Source: Diphasiastrum complanatum (taxonomy: Eukaryota; Streptophyta; Lycopodiopsida; Lycopodiales; Lycopodiaceae). Taken from it: 64,000 nt of DNA. Position 1 is the stretch's first letter, and the number at the start of each line of letters is the position of its first letter. The notes under the pieces are model-generated. The model did not search any database. It was not told the DNA's origin and worked only from the letters and a program-made list of their open reading frames with translations. The translations under genes were made by a program, and so were the position numbers. The stretch lies in contig CM055095.1 in NCBI GenBank assembly GCA_029204225.1, positions 49,298,841-49,362,840 of the forward strand, read 5' to 3'. Positions 3,079-59,235 of this stretch are shown in pieces.

Positions 3079-3826
3079 TCGCTGGCAAACATCACATGTC
3101 TGAATAAAACGTTATGTGTCCTTATGAAGTGTAGGCCACCAACAACCTGATTGCAAAAGTTTGTGAATAGTAATATCTGTAGAGAAGTGTCCTCTGCCCA
3201 TGCCATCATGTGAAAACATGATTAAATCTAGGACTTCATGTGGTAAAACACATCTATGTAGAATACTGTTTGATCCACGACAAGACAATTGTCCTACAAT
3301 CAATTGATAAAGTTGAGCCTTATGAATCAATTGTCTCTTTTGTACTTCTATCAAGGAGTCATTTGGTTGTCCTAGCATCAGCTTCTCAACAATATTTGCT
3401 GCCCACTCAGGTTTTGCTTCGACATAGAACAATGCAGCATCTGGTAATTCATCATCCTCTTCAATGTTAATTGGTGCAGATTCGATTCGCGAAACATGAT
3501 CGGCGAGATAATATTGCTTCCCCTTTCGAACCACAATTCGAAAGTCAAATTCAGTCAATAACAATAACCATCTTGCAATACGTCCAGTATTGCATGTCTT
3601 GTTTACCAAGTAAAGTAACGGTTGGTGATCCGTATAAAATGCAAAGTGCATTTCCATGAGGTAGTGACAAAATTTTGGAACAGAAAAAATCATGGCTAAC
3701 GCCTCACGTTCTGTTGTTGAATAATTTTTCTCTGGATCTGTAAGTTGTCTGCTTGCAAATCGTATATGATAATCCTTCTTATAATCTCCTGGCTGCATCA
3801 AAACTGATCCAATGGCATATTACGAC
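3079..3826 (-). pseudogene. Ty3 RNase H and integrase zinc-finger segment, inverted
   Basis: An open frame at 3112-3801 on the minus strand encodes RNase H (ASRQLTDPEKNYSTTEREALA, then FYTDHQPL with the expected acidic residues). The integrase N-terminal HHCC region follows (HDGMGRGHF ... GCWWPTLHKD), and beyond one stop CDVCQRAR is still readable toward 3079. It lies between plus-strand RT (to 3078) and plus-strand integrase core (from 3827). Flipping this segment restores the normal RT-RNase H-integrase order, with reading continuous on both sides: HTD followed by a YAIGSVL-type run, and CQRAR followed by PTRQNYKPLHP. This is a clean internal inversion of about 750 bp in one element, not a second element. 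Confidence 0.8.
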
Positions 3827-4042: not shown

Positions 4043-5823
4043 TTAATTTGCACCATTGAATTTGCCATGTCATATGTATTATGTGAATTTATCGAGTGCT
4101 TCAGATTTATTCTGAATAAAATACACTCTGGCAAATTTGCTATAATCATCAATGAAGGTTATATAATACTTTGAACCTCCTACTAAGATCACGTTGAATG
4201 GTCCGCAGATGTCAGATTGCACTAGCTCCAGAATCTTTGTCATTCTGTAGGAGTCTTTGATGAATGGAGTGTGCGACATCTTGCCCTTCAAACATGCATC
4301 ACAGGTGGTCGAACTTGTTGCATTCGAGATGATGACCCCTGTTATCGCTCCATGATGGCTTGCTTGGTAAAGTGCCATTGAGTTCATGTGGCAGAGTCTT
4401 CTGTGTCACAGAGTGTCTGGCAAGTCATCATGAGTCTGATGCACCTGATCTTCAGGTAGGCGTACCTTCAGATGATATAGGTTACCTTTCTTTCTGCCTT
4501 GAGCGATGAGAGTACTGGTACTGGCGTCAATCATGTTGTATGCTTCGTTAGAAAACGTCACATGCATCTCTGCATCTGCTATTCTTGTTACAGAGAGCAA
4601 GTCTTATTGCAGAGTAGGCATGTACAGAATGTCTTTGAGTCGTCTGTCTCTGTCGTTGTGAACTAATACCGTTCACTTGATGCTTAGATCCATCTCCAAG
4701 AATTATGAATCTTGAAGGATCTGCACTTCTGAAATCAGATTCGTCTTGATGTCACGAAGTGTGAGATGGCTCCTGAATATAGGATCACCTCATGTTTGTC
4801 AGATGTTGATGCTGCACACATATCTTCACAAATGTAGGCGGTCGAACAATTTTTGTTCATTCTTTCTTCGCCCATCTTAGAGCTCTCGGGCTCCTAGACA
4901 TAGGACGAACTATTGTTGTTCTCCTATCTGTTCTGTGTTGATTTGTTCCTTGGATTCTGGCGGCAATCCATGGCTGCATGACCCTTCTTGTGACAATAGA
5001 TACACTCAATCTTGGGATTGACCTAGCATGTATCAACTGTATGTCCGTCTCATGCAAGTCTTCTTGTCTGCACTTTGTTGTTTTGACCTCCCTTTGGTCT
5101 TCCAGTTGCCTTTGCTTGTTCCTTCTGCTTGTTAATCACGATCCTGCCTCTGCTTCGACTCCCTCTTAGGCTTAAATTATTTCTTGAATTTTTCTCTATT
5201 GTCGTAGAGGGCCTGGTCAGAACCAAAATGTGATCAAGGTGTTCTCTGGCCTCGACTTCCTCTCGAATCTCGACAATCGTCTTTTTGAGGTCCATGGTAG
5301 GATCTTTCGCGAGCAGGACCCTCGTTGTCTGGAATGATCTGGATAAGGCTCTCAATAGGTATGTGAGCTGCTTCTCAGCTGACACTGCATTCTCTGCTCC
5401 AAAGTTATGTAGTGATAGAAACAGATCCTTCATCTTTCTTACGAAAGAGGTGAGGCCCTTTCCATCCCATTGTAGATTGGTCAGCTGATCTTCCAACATC
5501 ATGATCTGATTTCTTGATTTCATCTGAAATTTGGTGAGCAATGCATCCCACATCTCCTTAGCTTGGGGGAGTGTAGCCAGGTCAAGTGTGAGACTATCTT
5601 CGATGGAATATGATAGCAAGGCTACTGGCTTGTCGTTTTTTTCCCTCCATTCGTGTAGCTCCTTGCCTATTGTCGTAGGCATTTGTTTTGTGCCATCCAC
5701 CTAGGGGAAGAGTCCTTCGCCCTTGAGTATCAGTGATGTCTTAACCTTCCAAGATAGAAAGTTAGATCCTGAAGAATCAAGTATTGTGCAGATCTTGCTC
5801 TGCATGCTGTTGATTGAAGCCAT
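4043..5823 (-). pseudogene. Ty1/copia gag-protease-integrase relic (element A)
   Basis: Minus-strand copia polyprotein. Gag starts at the ATG near 5822 (MASINSMQ), has a stop at about 5701, then runs through a UBN2-type gag domain (5700-5050) and a perfect CCHC knuckle (C-IY-C-HKKG-H-AAMD-C, about 5004-4965). The protease motif near 4800-4760 reads YSGAISHF where DSGATSHF is expected, so the catalytic Asp is replaced by Tyr. The GAG-pre-integrase region (GNLYHL ... HRRLCHMN) and the integrase start (CDACLKGK, SDICGP, FIDDYSKF) follow to about 4079. The remaining integrase, RT and RNase H are absent. Several stops and frameshifts are present. Its primer-binding site and 5' LTR follow at 5924-6996. 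It begins abruptly beside the Ty3 integrase at about 4042. Confidence 0.8.
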
Positions 5824-27366: not shown

Positions 27367-28051
27367 TGTGAAAAGTACAGTACTAAGGACCATAAATGGA
27401 TCTTTGAATGATCCACAAGGTGATTGTATGCTTGTCAAACAGTCTATCAGAAACTACTCATCAGAAAACAAGATCTAGTTTAGCAGCTTGATGGGAAACA
27501 AGTAGAGACAATCAAAGCATTGATCAATTAGTATAATCCAACTCCACACATGTGGAAATAAGGCTGTAGTACGGCCTGTAGACGGTGTTTACAAAGTGCC
27601 AAAGCTGGGTTCCATTGGAAATCAAGAGTAATCACAATACAATGAGAGGAAACTCGAGTTTCTCCTTGAGGCTCCAAAAAGTTTCTATCTTCTCACTATG
27701 GAGAATGGGAATACATAGTAAAACACACTTCCTTTGCAAAGTGAAATCCAGCATGTAATAAGAAAGTAGACTCCACTTTCTTGCCCTAATGTGAAAATCC
27801 TAGCCTAGATCCAAGAGTCATGCTTGGTAGGTGCATGGTAGGTACAAATCTCATCATAAATCATGGTCTAGATCCTACAAAGTAGGAATTACTACCAAAT
27901 GGACACAACCACTCCTCTTGACTCGTGGTAACCTACTTTAGGTGTGTATGTACAAGTGGCACTTTGGCCATTCAAGTAACCAATAAACAATATTGACAAA
28001 ATGTACAATATTCTACATGGCTAGATTTGCCAATGTAGGCAATTTTTCACA
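27367..28051 (-). repeat. 3' LTR of copia element G
   Basis: TGTGAAAAGT ... TTTTTCACA with perfect short terminal inversions. It is about 97% identical by eye to 31663-32353, with roughly 20 differences, mostly transitions, plus one short indel. On the minus strand it is preceded by a purine tract (GAGGAGGAG). Confidence 0.9.
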
Positions 28052-29872
28052 CTCCTCCTCAAATCTAGCCTTGGAGATAACAATGCTTTTATCAATAACT
28101 CCAATTGAAGATCTAATCTTGACAAATGAATCTTTAGGTAAAGGTTTAGTAAACAAATCATCCAAGCAACTTGATGATGGCACGTGTTGGAGCTTGATCT
28201 CTTTAGCTTGCACTTTTTCCCTCACGAAATGATGAGCAATTTCGATGTGTTTGCTCCTTGCATGGAATGTAGGATTAGTTGCAAGTGATTGGGCTAATTG
28301 GTTGTCACAATAGATGATAGGGATCTCCTCCTCCATGACATGAAGCTCTACCAATAGCCTTTTGAGCCACAAGACCTCCTTGCATGTTGATGTCAAGCCC
28401 TTGTATTCGGATTCTGTGGAAGATAGGGAGATGGTATTTTGCTTTTTGGAAAGCCATGATACTACTCCATCACATAGAAAGGTGGCAAAGGCACTTGTTG
28501 ATCTTCTATCCACCTTGTCACCTGCAAAATCCGAGTCACTATAGGCTCTTAGGCCATGATTAGTTCCTCTATACAAAATACCAAAATTCTTAGTGGATGA
28601 AATGTATCTAAGAACTCTTTTGGCCATCTTCCAATGTGAAACTAGAGGACTTTGCATGAATTGGCTTAACTTTCCAACACTATAACTAAGATCAGGTCTA
28701 GTTATAGTTAAATAGATCAAGGAGCCAATAAGCCTTCTGTATAATGTGATGTCCTCAAAGGATACTTCATCACAACCAATAGATGCTTTTACATGTTGCT
28801 CCATTGGTGTCTCAATGCCTTTACAATTCTTCATTCCAAATCTATCTAGGATGGATGTAGCATATTGAGATTGACAAATGAAGCTAAAATCACATCCTCT
28901 AATAACCTCTATTCCAAGAATGAAGCTCAATAGGCCGAGATCTACCATCTTAAACTCTTTTGCTAAAGCAATTTTTACATCTCTAATTCCATCTAGATCA
29001 TTACCACTCAAGATAATGTCATCTACATACAAAACAAGAATAATGATCATGCCATCATGAAAACTTATATACAATGATGGATCATAGGCACTCATTACAA
29101 AATTGATGGAAATGAGAAAAGAGTTTAGCCTAGAGTACCATGCTCTAGGTGCTTGCTTGAGCCCATAAAGGCTCTTCTTCAAAAAACACACCTTTCCTTC
29201 ATGCTTTGCCTTGATGAAGCCCTTGGGTTGCCTCATGTAGGTCTCTTCCTCCAAATAACCATTGAGGAATGCATTTGTGAAGTCAAGTTGGAATAGCTCC
29301 CAATTGAAGGTTGTAGCAAGACTAATGATCAACCTGATAGTAACAAGCTTAGCCACAGGAGCAAAAGTCTCATCATAATCAATGCCTTTGGTTTGTAAAA
29401 AACCTTTGGCAACAAGCCTAGCTTTATGCTTGCTAATTGATCCATCTTGATTATACTTCAATCTAAATACCCACTTGCAATCAAGAGGTTTCTTCCCTTG
29501 AGGAAGATCCACAAGATCCCAAGTATGATTCTCAATAAGAGCATCATACTCTACTTGCATAGCATCCATCCAACTTTTAGACTTACAAGCATCTTCATAG
29601 CATGTTGGCTCATCTAACATTGAAGTAAGAAAGGTGTAAGATGTGAAAGATGACGAGCCTTCCCTTTGATCACCTTGACCATCATAGGTGAGCCTCAATG
29701 GCTTGGATCTTGCCCTTGTAGATCTTCTTGGAGTTCTTGGAGTTCTTGCATCTTGAGGTGGATCCTCAAGTTCTTCTTCACTTGGAAGCTCCTCCTCCAT
29801 CCTAGCATGATCCTTGGCATCAAGATGATTAGTAGCATTATCATTCAAATCACAAGCATGTCCTTCGTACAT
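28013..29872 (-). CDS. Copia reverse transcriptase-RNase H, open but lacking integrase (element G)
   Basis: An uninterrupted 619-residue frame. In the element this part copies retrotransposon RNA into DNA and removes the RNA strand. Visible parts: an acidic/Arg-rich linker (residues 20-65), RT with LDCKWVFRLKYN, KARLVAKGF, TFAPVAKL, QLDFTNAFLNG, YGLKQAPRAWY and the active site LYVDDIILSG (about residue 280), and RNase H with AYSDSDFAGD, SSTESEYKGL, CDNQLAQSLATNPTFHARSKHIEI and DLFTKPLP. The last ~13 residues are encoded inside the 3' LTR. Protease and degenerate gag lie upstream on the same strand, but the entire integrase is missing, since reading jumps from the post-protease region to the linker. 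The element therefore could move only with help in trans. The start Met is simply the first in the open frame; natively it would be part of a polyprotein. Confidence 0.85.
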   Translation of the reverse strand: MYEGHACDLNDNATNHLDAKDHARMEEELPSEEELEDPPQDARTPRTPRRSTRARSKPLRLTYDGQGDQREGSSSFTSYTFLTSMLDEPTCYEDACKSKSWMDAMQVEYDALIENHTWDLVDLPQGKKPLDCKWVFRLKYNQDGSISKHKARLVAKGFLQTKGIDYDETFAPVAKLVTIRLIISLATTFNWELFQLDFTNAFLNGYLEEETYMRQPKGFIKAKHEGKVCFLKKSLYGLKQAPRAWYSRLNSFLISINFVMSAYDPSLYISFHDGMIIILVLYVDDIILSGNDLDGIRDVKIALAKEFKMVDLGLLSFILGIEVIRGCDFSFICQSQYATSILDRFGMKNCKGIETPMEQHVKASIGCDEVSFEDITLYRRLIGSLIYLTITRPDLSYSVGKLSQFMQSPLVSHWKMAKRVLRYISSTKNFGILYRGTNHGLRAYSDSDFAGDKVDRRSTSAFATFLCDGVVSWLSKKQNTISLSSTESEYKGLTSTCKEVLWLKRLLVELHVMEEEIPIIYCDNQLAQSLATNPTFHARSKHIEIAHHFVREKVQAKEIKLQHVPSSSCLDDLFTKPLPKDSFVKIRSSIGVIDKSIVISKARFEEECEKLPTLANLAM

Positions 29873-50880: not shown

Positions 50881-52330
50881 ACATCACCTACACTAAAAGA
50901 ATCTTGATCAACTTTAGAGAACTCGAGAATAACAGAGCTACTACAGCTACAAACATTGTCAGGTCAAGAAGAGCTGCCAAGAGCACTCTACATACCTTCA
51001 CTGAGAAGAGACCTGCTATCAGTCTCCAAGATGAGAGATCTTGAAATTCGAGTTCTATTCGATGGCAATACATGCCGAATGATCGAGAAAACAACGAACA
51101 AGTTGTTGACAGTTGGATGCAGAGAAGGTAATCTCTACCAAGCCAAGATAATCAACAATTCTGATAGCATACTAAATGCATCATAAAATTAAGATCAACT
51201 CTGGCACAGAAGAATGTATCATCTAAACAATAGGAGCCTGTACGACATGAGCAAGAAAGACATAGTCACAGGTTTGAAAATATCCAAACCCGATACTAAG
51301 TTCTGCAAAGCTTGTCAAAAAGGCAAACAGCATTGGAATCCATTCACACATGAGGGAAAAACAGCTAAAGAAGTTCTTAAGCGTGTCCACTCAGATGTCT
51401 GTGGACCGATGAAAGTCGATTCGCTCTTAGGATCGAGGTATTTTCTGACGTTCATTGATGACTACAGCCGGATGACAATAATCTATTATCTAAAGAAAAA
51501 ATCTGAAGTGTTTGACTCTTTCAAGAAGTTCGTGGCATTTGCAGAGAGACACACCTCAAAGAATATTCAGATCATTAGGTCTGATAATGGAGGTGAGAAA
51601 CAAGACGCTAGTCGAAGGAGCCAGATGGATGATCGCACAGGCTTGATTGCCAAGTCAATTTTGGGCTGAGGCAATAGCTACAACAATACACCTACAGAAT
51701 AGATCAACAACGACAGCCGTGAAAAACAAGACACCGTACAAAATATAGATAGGTAAAAAATATAATATATCAAATGTGCGTGTATTCGGATGTGCAGCAT
51801 ACAAGCACATACCAAAAGAAAAAGAAACAAACTCGATGAAAAATCAGAGTAGACAATCATGATCGGATACTCGAACGGATTACAAGTGTACAAACTCTAC
51901 AATCCAACCACGAAGAAAGTCGTGTCAAGTAGAGATGTGAAGTCTGACGAGTCCACATTTCCTGGATTGAATGACAAAAAAGGCCATGAGATCTTCACAC
52001 TACTGCCGATTCAAGAGGGAGATCGAGGACAAGTATCAAGTCAGAACATTGAGCCCTAGACTCCAGAGCAACAGGAAGTCGAAGATCAACCCGACAAAGA
52101 AAAAACATTCGAACAGTGACGAATCGAACCCAGAAGGTCGACAAAACAAAGAAGACCTCCAGATCGATACACTGACAATCTTCGGTGGAGCGAAGACACG
52201 GAGATCGAATACTGCAGCTTCATTGAAAAGCCAACTACATATCGAGAAGCTGTCTAGAGTCCAGAGGGAGAATTCTGGAAGCAGGCAATGTCAGAGAAAA
52301 TCGAATCAATGAGGCAAAACGAGGCATGGA
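50881..52330 (+). pseudogene. Element H GAG-pre-integrase and integrase, with internal deletion
   Basis: Reads ALYIPSLRRDLLSVSKM, EGNLYQAKI, then in 51214-51669 HHCC residues (YHLNNRSL, CKACQKGK), HSDVCGPM, FIDDYSRM and RSDNGGE (second catalytic Asp). Immediately after NGGE the sequence jumps to a shifted TLVEGARWMIAQA and FWAEAIATT. About 50 residues around the catalytic Glu (the usual NGVAER region) are therefore deleted. The C-terminal tail follows (VFGCAAYKHIPKEKE, MIGYSNGLQVYKLYNP, SSRDVKSDESTFPG). Confidence 0.8.
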
Positions 52331-55974: not shown

Positions 55975-56669
55975 TTAGAAAAAAAAAATCAACCGAATCG
56001 TCAATTACGTGAGGTAATGATCCATTGGTCGGACCACTACCACAAATAATCAGGTCCCCGGGTAGCTCGTGGCCTCACCACTCGCTGTCAGGTCCCAAAT
56101 TATTTATGGTAATGTCCCTCCCAATGGCCATTACCTACTACATAATCTTTTTTGCATTTTAAAACAATAAACCAAAAATATCATGCATTTCAAAAAAATT
56201 GTAGATTTTTTAAAAGTCAATTTATTGTAAGTTTTTTACAAAGTCAAATTTTGGAGAAAGATGCCAGTTCCAATCCTACACTTTGTCAGCTTTCCTGAAC
56301 ACTCACCCAAAGTTTGAATCAATTGAAATCCTAATGAAAAAAGATATATGCCTTATAAAGCTTTGTATAAAAATTTGATTTTTCTCCTTATAAACCAGTA
56401 GGTTTTTGGCTCATGAGTTGCTAGAAAGTCTACAGAATTTTTTATTAATAGGTTTCATGTTAGGTTGAAAAAAAAAATTCCACAAGCACTGGTGCCACCA
56501 ACATATCAAAGTTCATAAAACACTCCCAATATGTTCCTTTGTTATTTAGGGTGCGTTCCTGAAACATATTGCACTCTTAATATTTTTCCTTTGTTATTTA
56601 GGGTGTGAATGTGTGTGTGTATCTTACGATAATATAGGAAGGTAAAAATATTAAGAATATTTTTATGTC
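55972..56669. other. Upstream flank of the mannosylglycerate synthase gene
   Basis: AT-rich, no gene. The phrase TTCCTTTGTTATTTAGGGTG is directly duplicated at 56534 and 56588, with a period of about 54 bp. Confidence 0.5.
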
Positions 56670-57001: not shown

Positions 57002-57008
57002 TATAAAT
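57002..57008 (+). promoter_or_regulatory. Putative TATA box of the synthase gene
   Basis: TATAAAT, about 250 bp upstream of the start codon. It is followed by a pyrimidine-rich patch (CCTCTCTTCTTTCTCTCTCC near 57038-57057), typical of plant core promoters near the transcription start. From 57010 to 57255 there is no ATG, which fits a scanned leader. Confidence 0.55.
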
Positions 57009-57255
57009 GAAGCTCCTCCTCTCGTGAATCGCCAGCGCCTCTCTTCTTTCTCTCTCCCCTGTCTGCCTTGTTGCTCGCTGCTGGCGCAAGCTTTCGTCGC
57101 CCAGCTCTTGCACGGTGGCGCGGGCGAATTGGTTTTCTCATCGATCCTCGAGAATAGTAGCTTCAGTGAGCACTTGCACTCTGCTGGCTACAATCGCTTT
57201 CAAGAAGCAAAACTGTGTGTGAGAGGTCGAGAAGATTCACGATCTAGAAAGTAGC

Positions 57256-58551
57256 ATGTCTCTGGTGTGCTTTCCTTTCAAGGAAGAGGATGTATCTGTT
57301 GTGGTGAGAAACGTAGAGTGCGCAGCCTCCCATACTTCTGTTGCGGGCGTTTTGTGTGTGGGTTTTAGCAAAGGCGAGACATGGCATGCTATAGAGTCTG
57401 CTAAGCCTGCTATTGAGCATTCGACAGGAAAACCTGTCATTCTCCTTCAGCAGCGACGAATAGGAACTTCTTTGAGAGGAGGCAAGGGCGATGGCATGAA
57501 TACTGCTCTTATTTACCTTTTGGATAATACTGAATACAAAGGACTTCATTTCTATGATGCAGATATAGTGTCCTTCTCTGCGGAATGGATCAGCAAAGCT
57601 GAAAAGCAAGCTGATCTAGATTACGATGTGGTGAGACACTACTTTCCAAGATCAAGCACTGATGCTATGATAACCTGGCTTGTCACGAAGATTGGCTTCG
57701 CTCTCCTTTGGCCCAACTCGATTCTTCCTGTCATAGAGCAACCCTTGGGAGGGGAGCTTTATCTTTCCAAAAAAGCTGCCGAAATTCTCATTGCAGACCC
57801 GCGCGTGCGCGATCAAAGCGATTGGGGAATTGACACCCTATACACTTTTGTCATGGCCCAAAAGGGCCTTCGCATGGCAGAAGTTTACGTTCCTGAAGGG
57901 AAAGTGCATGCGCTCTATGGTGGACTGCAGGATCTCAGAAAGATGTTAGTGGAATGCTTTGCTGCCATTCAATCCCTGAGACATGAGGTGATTGTGGCCG
58001 AAAGCCGCCACAGGATCGAGAATCCGAGGCCTGTGCCAGAGACAGTGAAGCAGAAAATAGGCTACGACATAGAAAAAACTCTCAAGCTTCTCAAGAGCAA
58101 CTGGAGTCCTCGCCAGAAGGACTTGCTGCAACAATACTTCGATCCAGCGCTGGCGAAGGGGATGCTGCATTCAATGGAGTGGCCTTGCTGGAGCTTTGCA
58201 GATGAGGATGCATGGATATCTGCCTATCAGAAGCTTCTTGATCACTTCGAGAAAGGGGATTTTGACTGGGAGGAGCTTCTTTTCAAAATATGGGTTGCAA
58301 GAGTGCTGAATCACACCATGAAGAATGTGATTCGTGGATACGATGTCGCCTTGGGATCTCTAAGAGATTTTGTCTCAGAAACTCAGCACAAAGCAGCGAT
58401 TCAACTGAAAGCTTCTTCAGCGGCTGCTGCAAACATTGCAGCCCACCCAATTGCATCAGGCCACACGGCTATGGAGGGCCTCTCAAATGGACACCAGAGC
58501 CGCAGGAAAACAAACTGGTCCAACATCGGAGCTGCTAGCACTGTCCAATGA
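57256..58551 (+). CDS. MGS: Mannosylglycerate synthase (GT78), single exon
   Basis: 431 residues, no stop or intron. Catalyses GDP-mannose + D-glycerate to 2-O-alpha-mannosyl-D-glycerate + GDP, a one-step compatible-solute synthesis, presumably in the cytosol (no signal peptide or membrane segment seen). Recognised from the family pattern: MSLVCFPFK start, QQRRIGT and GGKGDGMNTAL (66-85), DXD metal motif HFYDADIVSF (DAD 101-103), VRHYFPRSSTDAMITW (126-141), EQPLGGEL (161-168), SDWGIDTLYTF (188-198), EGKVHALYGG with His218, and a C-terminal helical part ending WEELLFKIW (338-346). These sit within one residue of the Rhodothermus marinus enzyme, which is just under 400 residues. The extra Ala-rich tail (from about 385) is not conserved. 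The start is supported by homology beginning at residue 1, A at -3 and an ATG-free leader. The coding region looks richer in G+C than its flanks. Plant homologues are known from Selaginella and mosses, and some also make glucosylglycerate. Transfer from bacteria in an early land plant is possible. Confidence 0.93.
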   Translation: MSLVCFPFKEEDVSVVVRNVECAASHTSVAGVLCVGFSKGETWHAIESAKPAIEHSTGKPVILLQQRRIGTSLRGGKGDGMNTALIYLLDNTEYKGLHFYDADIVSFSAEWISKAEKQADLDYDVVRHYFPRSSTDAMITWLVTKIGFALLWPNSILPVIEQPLGGELYLSKKAAEILIADPRVRDQSDWGIDTLYTFVMAQKGLRMAEVYVPEGKVHALYGGLQDLRKMLVECFAAIQSLRHEVIVAESRHRIENPRPVPETVKQKIGYDIEKTLKLLKSNWSPRQKDLLQQYFDPALAKGMLHSMEWPCWSFADEDAWISAYQKLLDHFEKGDFDWEELLFKIWVARVLNHTMKNVIRGYDVALGSLRDFVSETQHKAAIQLKASSAAAANIAAHPIASGHTAMEGLSNGHQSRRKTNWSNIGAASTVQ

Positions 58552-58844
58552 TAAATGCATCAAATAGACGTAGATGATTTGCTGTGTGCTTAACAAGTAT
58601 TCCTCTGGTGGTAGCACCATAGAGTTTGTGTATTGTTGTGTGGAGTATGAGCAGAGTTGCATTACATAAAAAGTCTATACTTTGTTTAGTGCATACGTAA
58701 AGTACATATGTAACAAATTAGATCATGTCTAGACTCTGAACCTTGTTCAGGTTTATTACTTGGCCATTAGGTTAAGTTCCTCTCAATTAGCGAGTTCTTG
58801 AGGTTAATTTCTTCTCCAAACAAGTAGTGAGCGCAAGTTGGGAA
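58552..58844 (+). other. 3' untranslated region of the synthase gene
   Basis: TGT-rich stretch (TTTGTGTATTGTTGTGTGG near 58625) followed by ATAAAAAG near 58668 and TATGTAACAAAT near 58706 could serve as plant polyadenylation signals. No canonical AATAAA was seen. Confidence 0.35.
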
Positions 58845-59235
58845 GATACTTTTTTTGAGTGGTCATTTTGGAGGAGCTCATTAAAAAAGTTGCACCATTC
58901 TGATAGTTGGGTGAAAACTCATATTGCAAGTCAAAAACGGAGCTGGAGCTGGAAAGATGCATGCTTTGGATAGTCATTATGGAAGAACGCTCTTAGGAAG
59001 CTTTACGAATCTCAAGTCAAAAATGGAGCTGAAGCTGGAAAGATGCATGCTTTGTTTGGATAGTCATTATGGAAGAACGCTCTGAGGAAGCTGCATGAAC
59101 TCTGATTGTTGTTGGGTGAAAAGTCAAATTTTAAGTCTCAATTGGAGGTGAGGCTAGGAGGATCCATGATTGGAGCGGTCAATCTGGAGGAGCTCACTGT
59201 AACTTGTAAGCTGCACCACTCTGACGGTTGTTTGG
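58845..59235. repeat. Diverged tandem repeat just downstream of the synthase gene, about 4 units
   Basis: Units of roughly 85-120 bp share GGAAAGATGCATGCTTTG, ATAGTCATTATGGAAGAACGCTC, AAGCTGCA and GTTGGGTGAAAA.TCA, then AAGTCAAAAATGGAGCT.AAGCT. Units 2 and 3 (about 58960-59045 and 59036-59155) are the closest; the outer ones are strongly diverged. Confidence 0.75.

What the first reader, a model, noticed from the sequence alone, without database searches (positions are those of the whole stretch)
57256..58551. Intact mannosylglycerate synthase gene in a plant genome
The sequence shows an uninterrupted 431-residue frame with the GT78 pattern: DXD at 101-103, WGIDTLY with Asp193, EGKVHALYGG with His218, STDAMITW and EQPLGGEL. 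Family knowledge: GT78 enzymes make the compatible solute mannosylglycerate in thermophilic bacteria and red algae, with plant members known mainly from Selaginella and mosses. It is the only gene in the window with a likely cellular role, sits in a retrotransposon desert, and is intronless, which fits an ancient transfer or retroposition. If the host is a fern or homosporous lycophyte, it would extend the known range of this pathway.
Basis: partly seen in the sequence, partly recalled or inferred. Interest (0 to 1): 0.85.

Follow-up and report, generated by a model that had tools for sequence, protein, structure and literature searches.

The report
Mannosylglycerate synthase gene in a clubmoss
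A plant genome, most likely that of a clubmoss, carries intact genes for an enzyme known from heat-loving bacteria that makes a protective sugar-acid, and probably also genes for the enzyme that breaks it down; this extends a pathway already reported in a spikemoss and a moss to another plant lineage and is not a new kind of system.

Summary
57256-58551 is a clean 431-codon frame matching both Pfam domains of GT78 mannosylglycerate synthase, 54% identical to the Rhodothermus marinus enzyme, with the same predicted fold (TM 0.97-0.98 on the target) and conserved catalytic positions. It is nuclear: the window lies in a 78.7 Mb contig with three intact intronless copies; a frameshifted copy lies on another. 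No bacterial relative found exceeds 57% over full length. Copies A and B show dN/dS 0.13, so the protein has been kept. Chalcone synthases place the host near Lycopodiaceae; Diphasiastrum is inferred. Two mannosylglycerate-hydrolase-like genes are present; no GT55 synthase was found. GT78 was already reported from Selaginella, Physcomitrella and Coleochaete, so this is a new member of a known kind. Retroposition is unsupported: no intron-bearing parent was found. Extra: pieces of this gene are scattered through the genome, some inside a repeat family, apparently unselected. Activity, expression and solute are untested.

The parts
57256..58551 (+). Intact intronless CDS of a GT78 mannosylglycerate synthase homologue (copy A), 431 aa plus stop
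57259..57975 (+). GT-A catalytic domain, Pfam PF21969 MGS_GT (aa 2-240)
   Evidence: profile 1-239 of 239, 457 bits
57556..57564 (+). DXD motif D101-A-D103, equal to D100/D102 of R. marinus MGS; both Asp in 43 of 43 bacterial rows
   Evidence: metal/donor role recalled
57832..57834 (+). Asp193 (R. marinus D192), conserved in 43 of 43 bacterial rows
   Evidence: catalytic role recalled
57907..57909 (+). His218 (R. marinus H217), conserved in 43 of 43 bacterial rows; the next residue is Ala where R. marinus has Arg218
   Evidence: metal-ligand role recalled
58045..58374 (+). C-terminal domain, Pfam PF21967 MGS_C (aa 264-373)
   Evidence: profile 1-110 of 110, 182 bits
58405..58548 (+). C-terminal tail of the plant copies (aa 384-431), predicted disordered from aa 396; dN/dS between A and B 0.58 against 0.10 in the core
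57002..57007 (+). TATAAA, 254 bases before the ATG; candidate TATA box
   Evidence: no expression data
57202..58937 (+). Stretch homologous to copy B (C4:49.118 Mb), 81% identity over 1781 columns

Best explanation
Copy A is a working nuclear gene for a one-step mannosylglycerate synthase (GT78), one of three intact copies in a homosporous lycophyte near or in Lycopodiaceae. The enzyme would move mannose (perhaps also glucose) from a GDP-sugar onto D-glycerate with retention of configuration, using the DXD-bound metal. The product, mannosylglycerate, would act as a compatible solute in drying, cold or salt, and GH63-type hydrolases encoded elsewhere in the genome would recycle it. Shown: family, predicted fold, intact frame, conserved active-site residues, purifying selection between copies, a copy family in chromosome-size contigs, hydrolase-like genes. 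Inferred: activity, donor choice, expression, solute role, host species.
For: Pfam MGS_GT and MGS_C over full profile length. AlphaFold model, pLDDT 88.9, from a 34-row alignment (3 plant rows and 31 of 47 bacterial loci), matches the R. marinus structures at TM 0.97-0.98 on the target, rmsd 1.0-1.2 A. Equivalents of K76, D78, D100, D102, D135, T139, Q161, G164, D192, K215, H217, Y220 and M229 are identical in copies A and B and in 43 of 43 bacterial rows; R131 in 42 of 43. A against B: dS 0.445, dN 0.058, w 0.131. Two PF22422 hydrolase-like genes, each with one exon tested and hitting Thermus 2z07/4wva best. No GT55 match in the genome. S. moellendorffii MgH is cited as biochemically characterized in PMC6608630 (passages).
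Against: No transcript, enzyme or metabolite data. A219 replaces the residue at R. marinus R218 (K or R in 35 of 43 bacterial rows, A in 7, G in 1), so kinetics or donor choice could differ. Copy D is frameshifted and also has Met where 43 of 43 bacterial rows have Gln66, so family members do decay. The hydrolase annotation rests on exon pieces, not whole proteins; several PF22422 matches contain in-frame stops, at least partly because they run into introns; and PF22422 is a broad family that also rang in 7 of 14 control genomes.
Confidence: 0.85

Rival explanations
1. The enzyme is a GT78 member but in this plant mainly makes glucosylglycerate or another glycerate-type glycoside, and serves development or signalling rather than osmoprotection.
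For: Loop residue A219 differs from R. marinus R218. The hydrolase-like exons resemble both mannosyl- and glucosylglycerate hydrolases.
Against: M229, Y220, H217 and the other listed active-site positions are unchanged; the Thermus enzyme is the better match in both hydrolase tests (119.5 and 123.5 bits against about 80 and 75 for the mycobacterial enzyme).
Confidence: 0.25
2. Processed retrogene: an intron-bearing plant MGS was reverse-transcribed and re-inserted.
For: No introns in the coding frame; detected homology between copies A and B is confined mainly to 54 bases before the ATG to 386 bases after the stop, a transcript-like unit.
Against: The four long copies found are intronless in the coding frame and no intron-bearing copy was found, though only the best candidates were scored; the short pieces examined are scattered fragments, not exon series. 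No poly(A) tract at the end of the homology (by eye). Target-site duplication not tested.
Confidence: 0.07
3. Bacterial contamination or very recent bacterial transfer.
For: The closest foreign sequences on hand are bacterial (no other plant genomes were available to search) and there are no introns in the frame.
Against: The window lies at 49.3 Mb of a 78.7 Mb contig with retroelement ORFs; two diverged types of intact copy plus a decayed one and dispersed fragments; best bacterial match 59% on a partial row, 57% or less on full ones; plant copies form one 100/100 clade on a 0.77 branch.
Confidence: 0.01

Closest known systems
Mannosylglycerate synthase of Rhodothermus marinus (GT78; PDB 2bo4, 2y4k)
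   Same: 54% identity, same two domains, same fold by prediction, same catalytic positions
   Different: One-residue insertion near aa 72, A219 for R218, an extra C-terminal tail that is predicted disordered; encoded in a plant nuclear genome
GT78 members of Selaginella moellendorffii, Physcomitrella patens and Coleochaete orbicularis
   Same: Plant/charophyte members of the same family, reported in PMC3342304 (passages); a moss EST is listed in PMC1079823 (passage)
   Different: Different lineage (near Lycopodiaceae, inferred); their sequences were not on hand, so not compared
Mannosylglycerate hydrolases of GH63 (Thermus thermophilus 4wva; S. moellendorffii MgH)
   Same: Two genes in this genome match PF22422 and one exon of each hits 2z07/4wva best; the S. 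moellendorffii enzyme is cited as characterized in PMC6608630 (passage)
   Different: The plant matches are split into pieces 118 to 7092 bases apart, read as introns; whole proteins were not assembled

Membership tests
GT78 mannosylglycerate synthase | Catalytic GT-A domain of the family (Pfam MGS_GT) | tested here: met
   457 bits, cut-off 27, profile 1-239 of 239
GT78 mannosylglycerate synthase | C-terminal domain (Pfam MGS_C) | tested here: met
   182 bits, cut-off 27, profile 1-110 of 110
GT78 mannosylglycerate synthase | Fold of 2bo4/2y4k | tested here: met
   predicted model, TM 0.97-0.98 on target, rmsd 1.0-1.2 A
GT78 mannosylglycerate synthase | DXD, D192, H217, Y220, R131, M229 (roles recalled) | tested here: met
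   all present in copies A and B
GT78 mannosylglycerate synthase | Transfer from GDP-mannose/GDP-glucose to D-glycerate, retaining | not testable with these tools
   needs enzyme assay
Plant GT78 clade (Selaginella, moss, Coleochaete) | Groups with those sequences in a tree | not testable with these tools
   no such sequences in the collections used; the tree has only own-genome and bacterial rows
Processed retrogene | Intron-bearing parent copy; poly(A) tract; target-site duplication | tested here: not met
   no intron-bearing copy found (best candidates only); no poly(A) tract by eye; target-site duplication not tested
GT55 two-step mannosyl-3-phosphoglycerate synthase pathway | PF09488 match in the genome | tested here: not met
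   0 matches in the genome; control hit in 1 of 14, Thermus composti
GH63 mannosylglycerate hydrolase (partner genes) | PF22422 match and nearest solved structure a mannosylglycerate hydrolase | tested here: inconclusive
   ordered PF22422 pieces at two loci and best PDB hit 2z07/4wva for one exon each, but whole proteins not assembled, some pieces with in-frame stops

The most novel reading that the evidence does not exclude
A complete one-step mannosylglycerate make-and-recycle module (three intact GT78 synthases, two GH63-type hydrolases) has been kept in homosporous lycophytes since before vascular plants, as a stress solute system lost or replaced in seed plants; its synthase gene is also a repeated source of gene pieces captured by mobile repeats.
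Probability: 0.5. Interest if true: 0.45.

Novelty: new member of a known kind. Interest (0 to 1): 0.35.

Why it matters
It gives chromosome-scale evidence, with a sign of purifying selection, for a bacterial-type solute enzyme in what appears to be a homosporous lycophyte, and pairs it with a likely hydrolase. With a tree that includes moss, Selaginella and algal members it could help date when plants gained the pathway and where they lost it. Metabolite extracts of Lycopodiaceae would test it directly.

Tried and rejected
Looked for an intron-bearing parent copy. Of 38 DNA matches, 5 are long (A, B, C, D and D's repeat on contig C1416) and 33 are short; of 37 protein matches, 7 belong to those copies and 30 are short. 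The short ones are scattered pieces (aa 1-43, 29-69, 207-235, 285-383, 371-431), not exon series. Only the best candidates are scored, so these counts are lower bounds; and of the copies compared base by base several small contigs repeat chromosomal places (99.7-100% identical), so they are not independent. Of the loci behind the short matches, flank comparison covered those fetched, not all.

Thought the captured pieces might be a domesticated chimeric gene: among three aligned repeat copies (of seven places) dN is about equal to dS (0.029-0.039 against 0.020-0.059, few changes), so passenger sequence is likelier. Viral contigs: 66 pattern matches, 0 relatives. The first bacterial scan with the single protein gave 0 relatives of 31 stretches; the alignment scan gave 47 of 119. 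Four of 47 bacterial rows (L083, L091, L092, L093) were dropped from the tree and the residue counts as partial or broken. RuBisCO large-subunit search to place the host gave only 3 short matches, not followed. NCBIfam gave no hit at E up to 1. A bacterial-type promoter scan of the upstream region is uninformative for a plant gene.

Paper searches joining mannosylglycerate with moss, Physcomitrella, lycophyte, Selaginella, GT78, horizontal gene transfer and glucosylglycerate listed no paper whose title or shown abstract concerns Lycopodiaceae; I did not read the full texts of all listed papers, and the library lacks most subscription papers, including the 2013 Selaginella enzyme paper, known to me only as a citation and from recall. 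Searches for the Diphasiastrum genome gave no paper that I used for its size or chromosome number; passages of PMC10419180 and PMC8490865 were read without effect on the verdict.

Full report
What is there. 57256-58551 on the + strand is an unbroken frame of 431 codons. It matches Pfam MGS_GT (457 bits, profile 1-239 of 239) and MGS_C (182 bits, 1-110 of 110) and the solved R. marinus mannosylglycerate synthase at 463 bits, 54% identity in the alignment.

Structure. A2 aligns P0001 with copy B, the 5' part of copy D and 31 of the 47 bacterial loci. The AlphaFold model has mean pLDDT 88.9 and pTM 0.85, with residues 396-431 below 50. Its eight best matches in the PDB are chains of the R. marinus enzyme (TM 0.97-0.98 on the target, rmsd 1.0-1.2 A), followed far behind by glucosyl- and mannosyl-3-phosphoglycerate synthases. 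In an alignment with 43 of 47 bacterial rows, the equivalents of K76, D78, D100, D102, D135, T139, Q161, G164, D192, K215, H217, Y220 and M229 are the same in copies A and B and in 43 of 43 bacteria; R131 in 42 of 43. At R218 copies A and B have Ala (bacteria: K 33, A 7, R 2, G 1) and copy D has Lys; copy D has Met at Q66, where 43 of 43 bacteria have Gln. Residue roles are recalled from the R. marinus structural papers, which I did not read.

Genome setting. The window is G000:C4:49298841-49362840 of a 1.745 Gb assembly in 5176 contigs; C4 is 78.7 Mb. Full-length intact copies are at C4:49.356 Mb (the window, A), 49.118 Mb (B) and 48.155 Mb (C); copy D at C5:44.337 Mb is frameshifted near residue 243 and is repeated on contig C1416. 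B and C differ by 1 nonsynonymous and 0 synonymous changes; A against B has dS 0.445, dN 0.058, dN/dS 0.131, with 0.104 in the core and 0.575 in the 48-codon tail. Copy D's two parts give dN/dS 0.075-0.178 against A and B, which suggests it decayed late. GC of the gene is 0.483, of the window 0.389. Of 10 other ORFs of at least 150 aa in the window, 4 carry retroelement domains over cut-off.

Host. Large-exon pieces of two chalcone synthase genes (two of the eight loci fetched) both hit 3awj/3awk best in the PDB (679 and 644 bits) ahead of 6dx8 (569 and 555 bits). PMC5954354 names 3awk as the Huperzia serrata enzyme (passage); that 6dx8 is from Selaginella is recalled. This is a ranking by similarity, not a tree, but it places the host in or near Lycopodiaceae. 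Among contigs seen, sizes fall from 101.6 Mb (C1) to 44.8 Mb (C22), and C369 is only 98 kb, which fits a chromosome-scale assembly; that Diphasiastrum complanatum has n=23 and about 1.7 Gb is recalled. The species is therefore an inference.

Origin. A scan of genome contigs with alignment A1 found 47 bacterial loci, in Bipolaricaulota/Acetothermia, Acidimicrobiia, Rhodothermus, Gemmatimonadota, Thermodesulfobacteriota and others. A tree of 3 plant rows, R. marinus and 43 of 47 bacterial rows puts the plant copies in one clade (100/100) on a branch of 0.77, with its neighbours unresolved. No bacterium found is a near copy, which speaks against contamination and recent transfer. An old gain is likely, but its date and number cannot be judged without moss, Selaginella and algal sequences.

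Pathway. PF22422 (MGH1-like GH) matches in ordered pieces at C20:12.09 Mb and C22:41.48 Mb, each repeated on a small contig; several pieces hold in-frame stops, at least partly because they run into introns; the family is broad and also rang in 7 of 14 control genomes. The gaps between pieces run from 118 to 7092 bases. One exon of each was compared with the PDB: best hit 2z07/4wva (119.5 and 123.5 bits), then the mycobacterial hydrolase (about 80 and 75 bits). 4wva is named as T. thermophilus MgH, and an S. moellendorffii MgH as characterized, in PMC6608630 (passages). The GT55 family PF09488 has 0 matches in the genome, with a positive control in Thermus composti. So the genome carries the synthase and a likely hydrolase, and of the two known routes only the one-step enzyme was found; other bifunctional synthases were not searched for apart from that family.

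What is known. PMC3342304 (passages) reports GT78 members in S. moellendorffii, P. patens and Coleochaete orbicularis; PMC1079823 (passage) lists a moss EST; PMC3390603 (passages) repeats the Selaginella report. The searches listed nothing about Lycopodiaceae by title or shown abstract. The finding is a new member of a known kind.

Extra. A repeat family carries a captured piece (117-298 bases) of this gene, within aa 286-382, at seven chromosomal places (C19, C5, C4 twice, C9, C17, C2); aligned stretches between copies, piece included, run up to about 1.4 kb at 82-98% identity, but the C2 copy aligns only over the piece. Other pieces are aa 371-431, 29-69, 1-43 and a 71-base piece at C5:1.04 Mb (repeated on contig C364) that is identical to copy A with 9 mismatches to B, so probably captured recently from A. 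Among three repeat copies dN is about equal to dS, on few changes.

Noticed in passing
L016, L018, L020, L026, L027, L032, L023 (own genome C19, C5, C4, C4, C9, C17, C2): Dispersed repeat family carrying a captured 117-298 base piece of the mannosylglycerate synthase frame (within aa 286-382); the ORFs of L018 were listed but not scanned for transposase, and no clear terminal inverted repeats were seen in L018.
   Followed up: partly
L105:1492-1562 (G000:C5:1.04 Mb): 71 bases identical to window 57880-57950 with flanks unlike the gene; 9 mismatches to copy B, so probably a recent capture from copy A.
   Followed up: partly
window 56135-56378: Upstream stretch 82-84% identical to sequence upstream of copy D, not found beside B; more alike than the coding regions of A and D (77%), so probably a mobile repeat inserted at both.
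   Followed up: no
window 28016-29872 (-), 3115-3801 (-), 5053-5700 (-), 51214-51666 (+): Retroelement pieces: reverse transcriptase RVT_2 (258 bits), RNase H, gag and integrase domains.
   Followed up: no
own genome C8:48.963, 48.972, 49.050, 49.059 Mb: Four chalcone-synthase matches with equal scores in two inverted pairs about 87 kb apart, suggesting a recent segmental duplication or an assembly duplicate.
   Followed up: no
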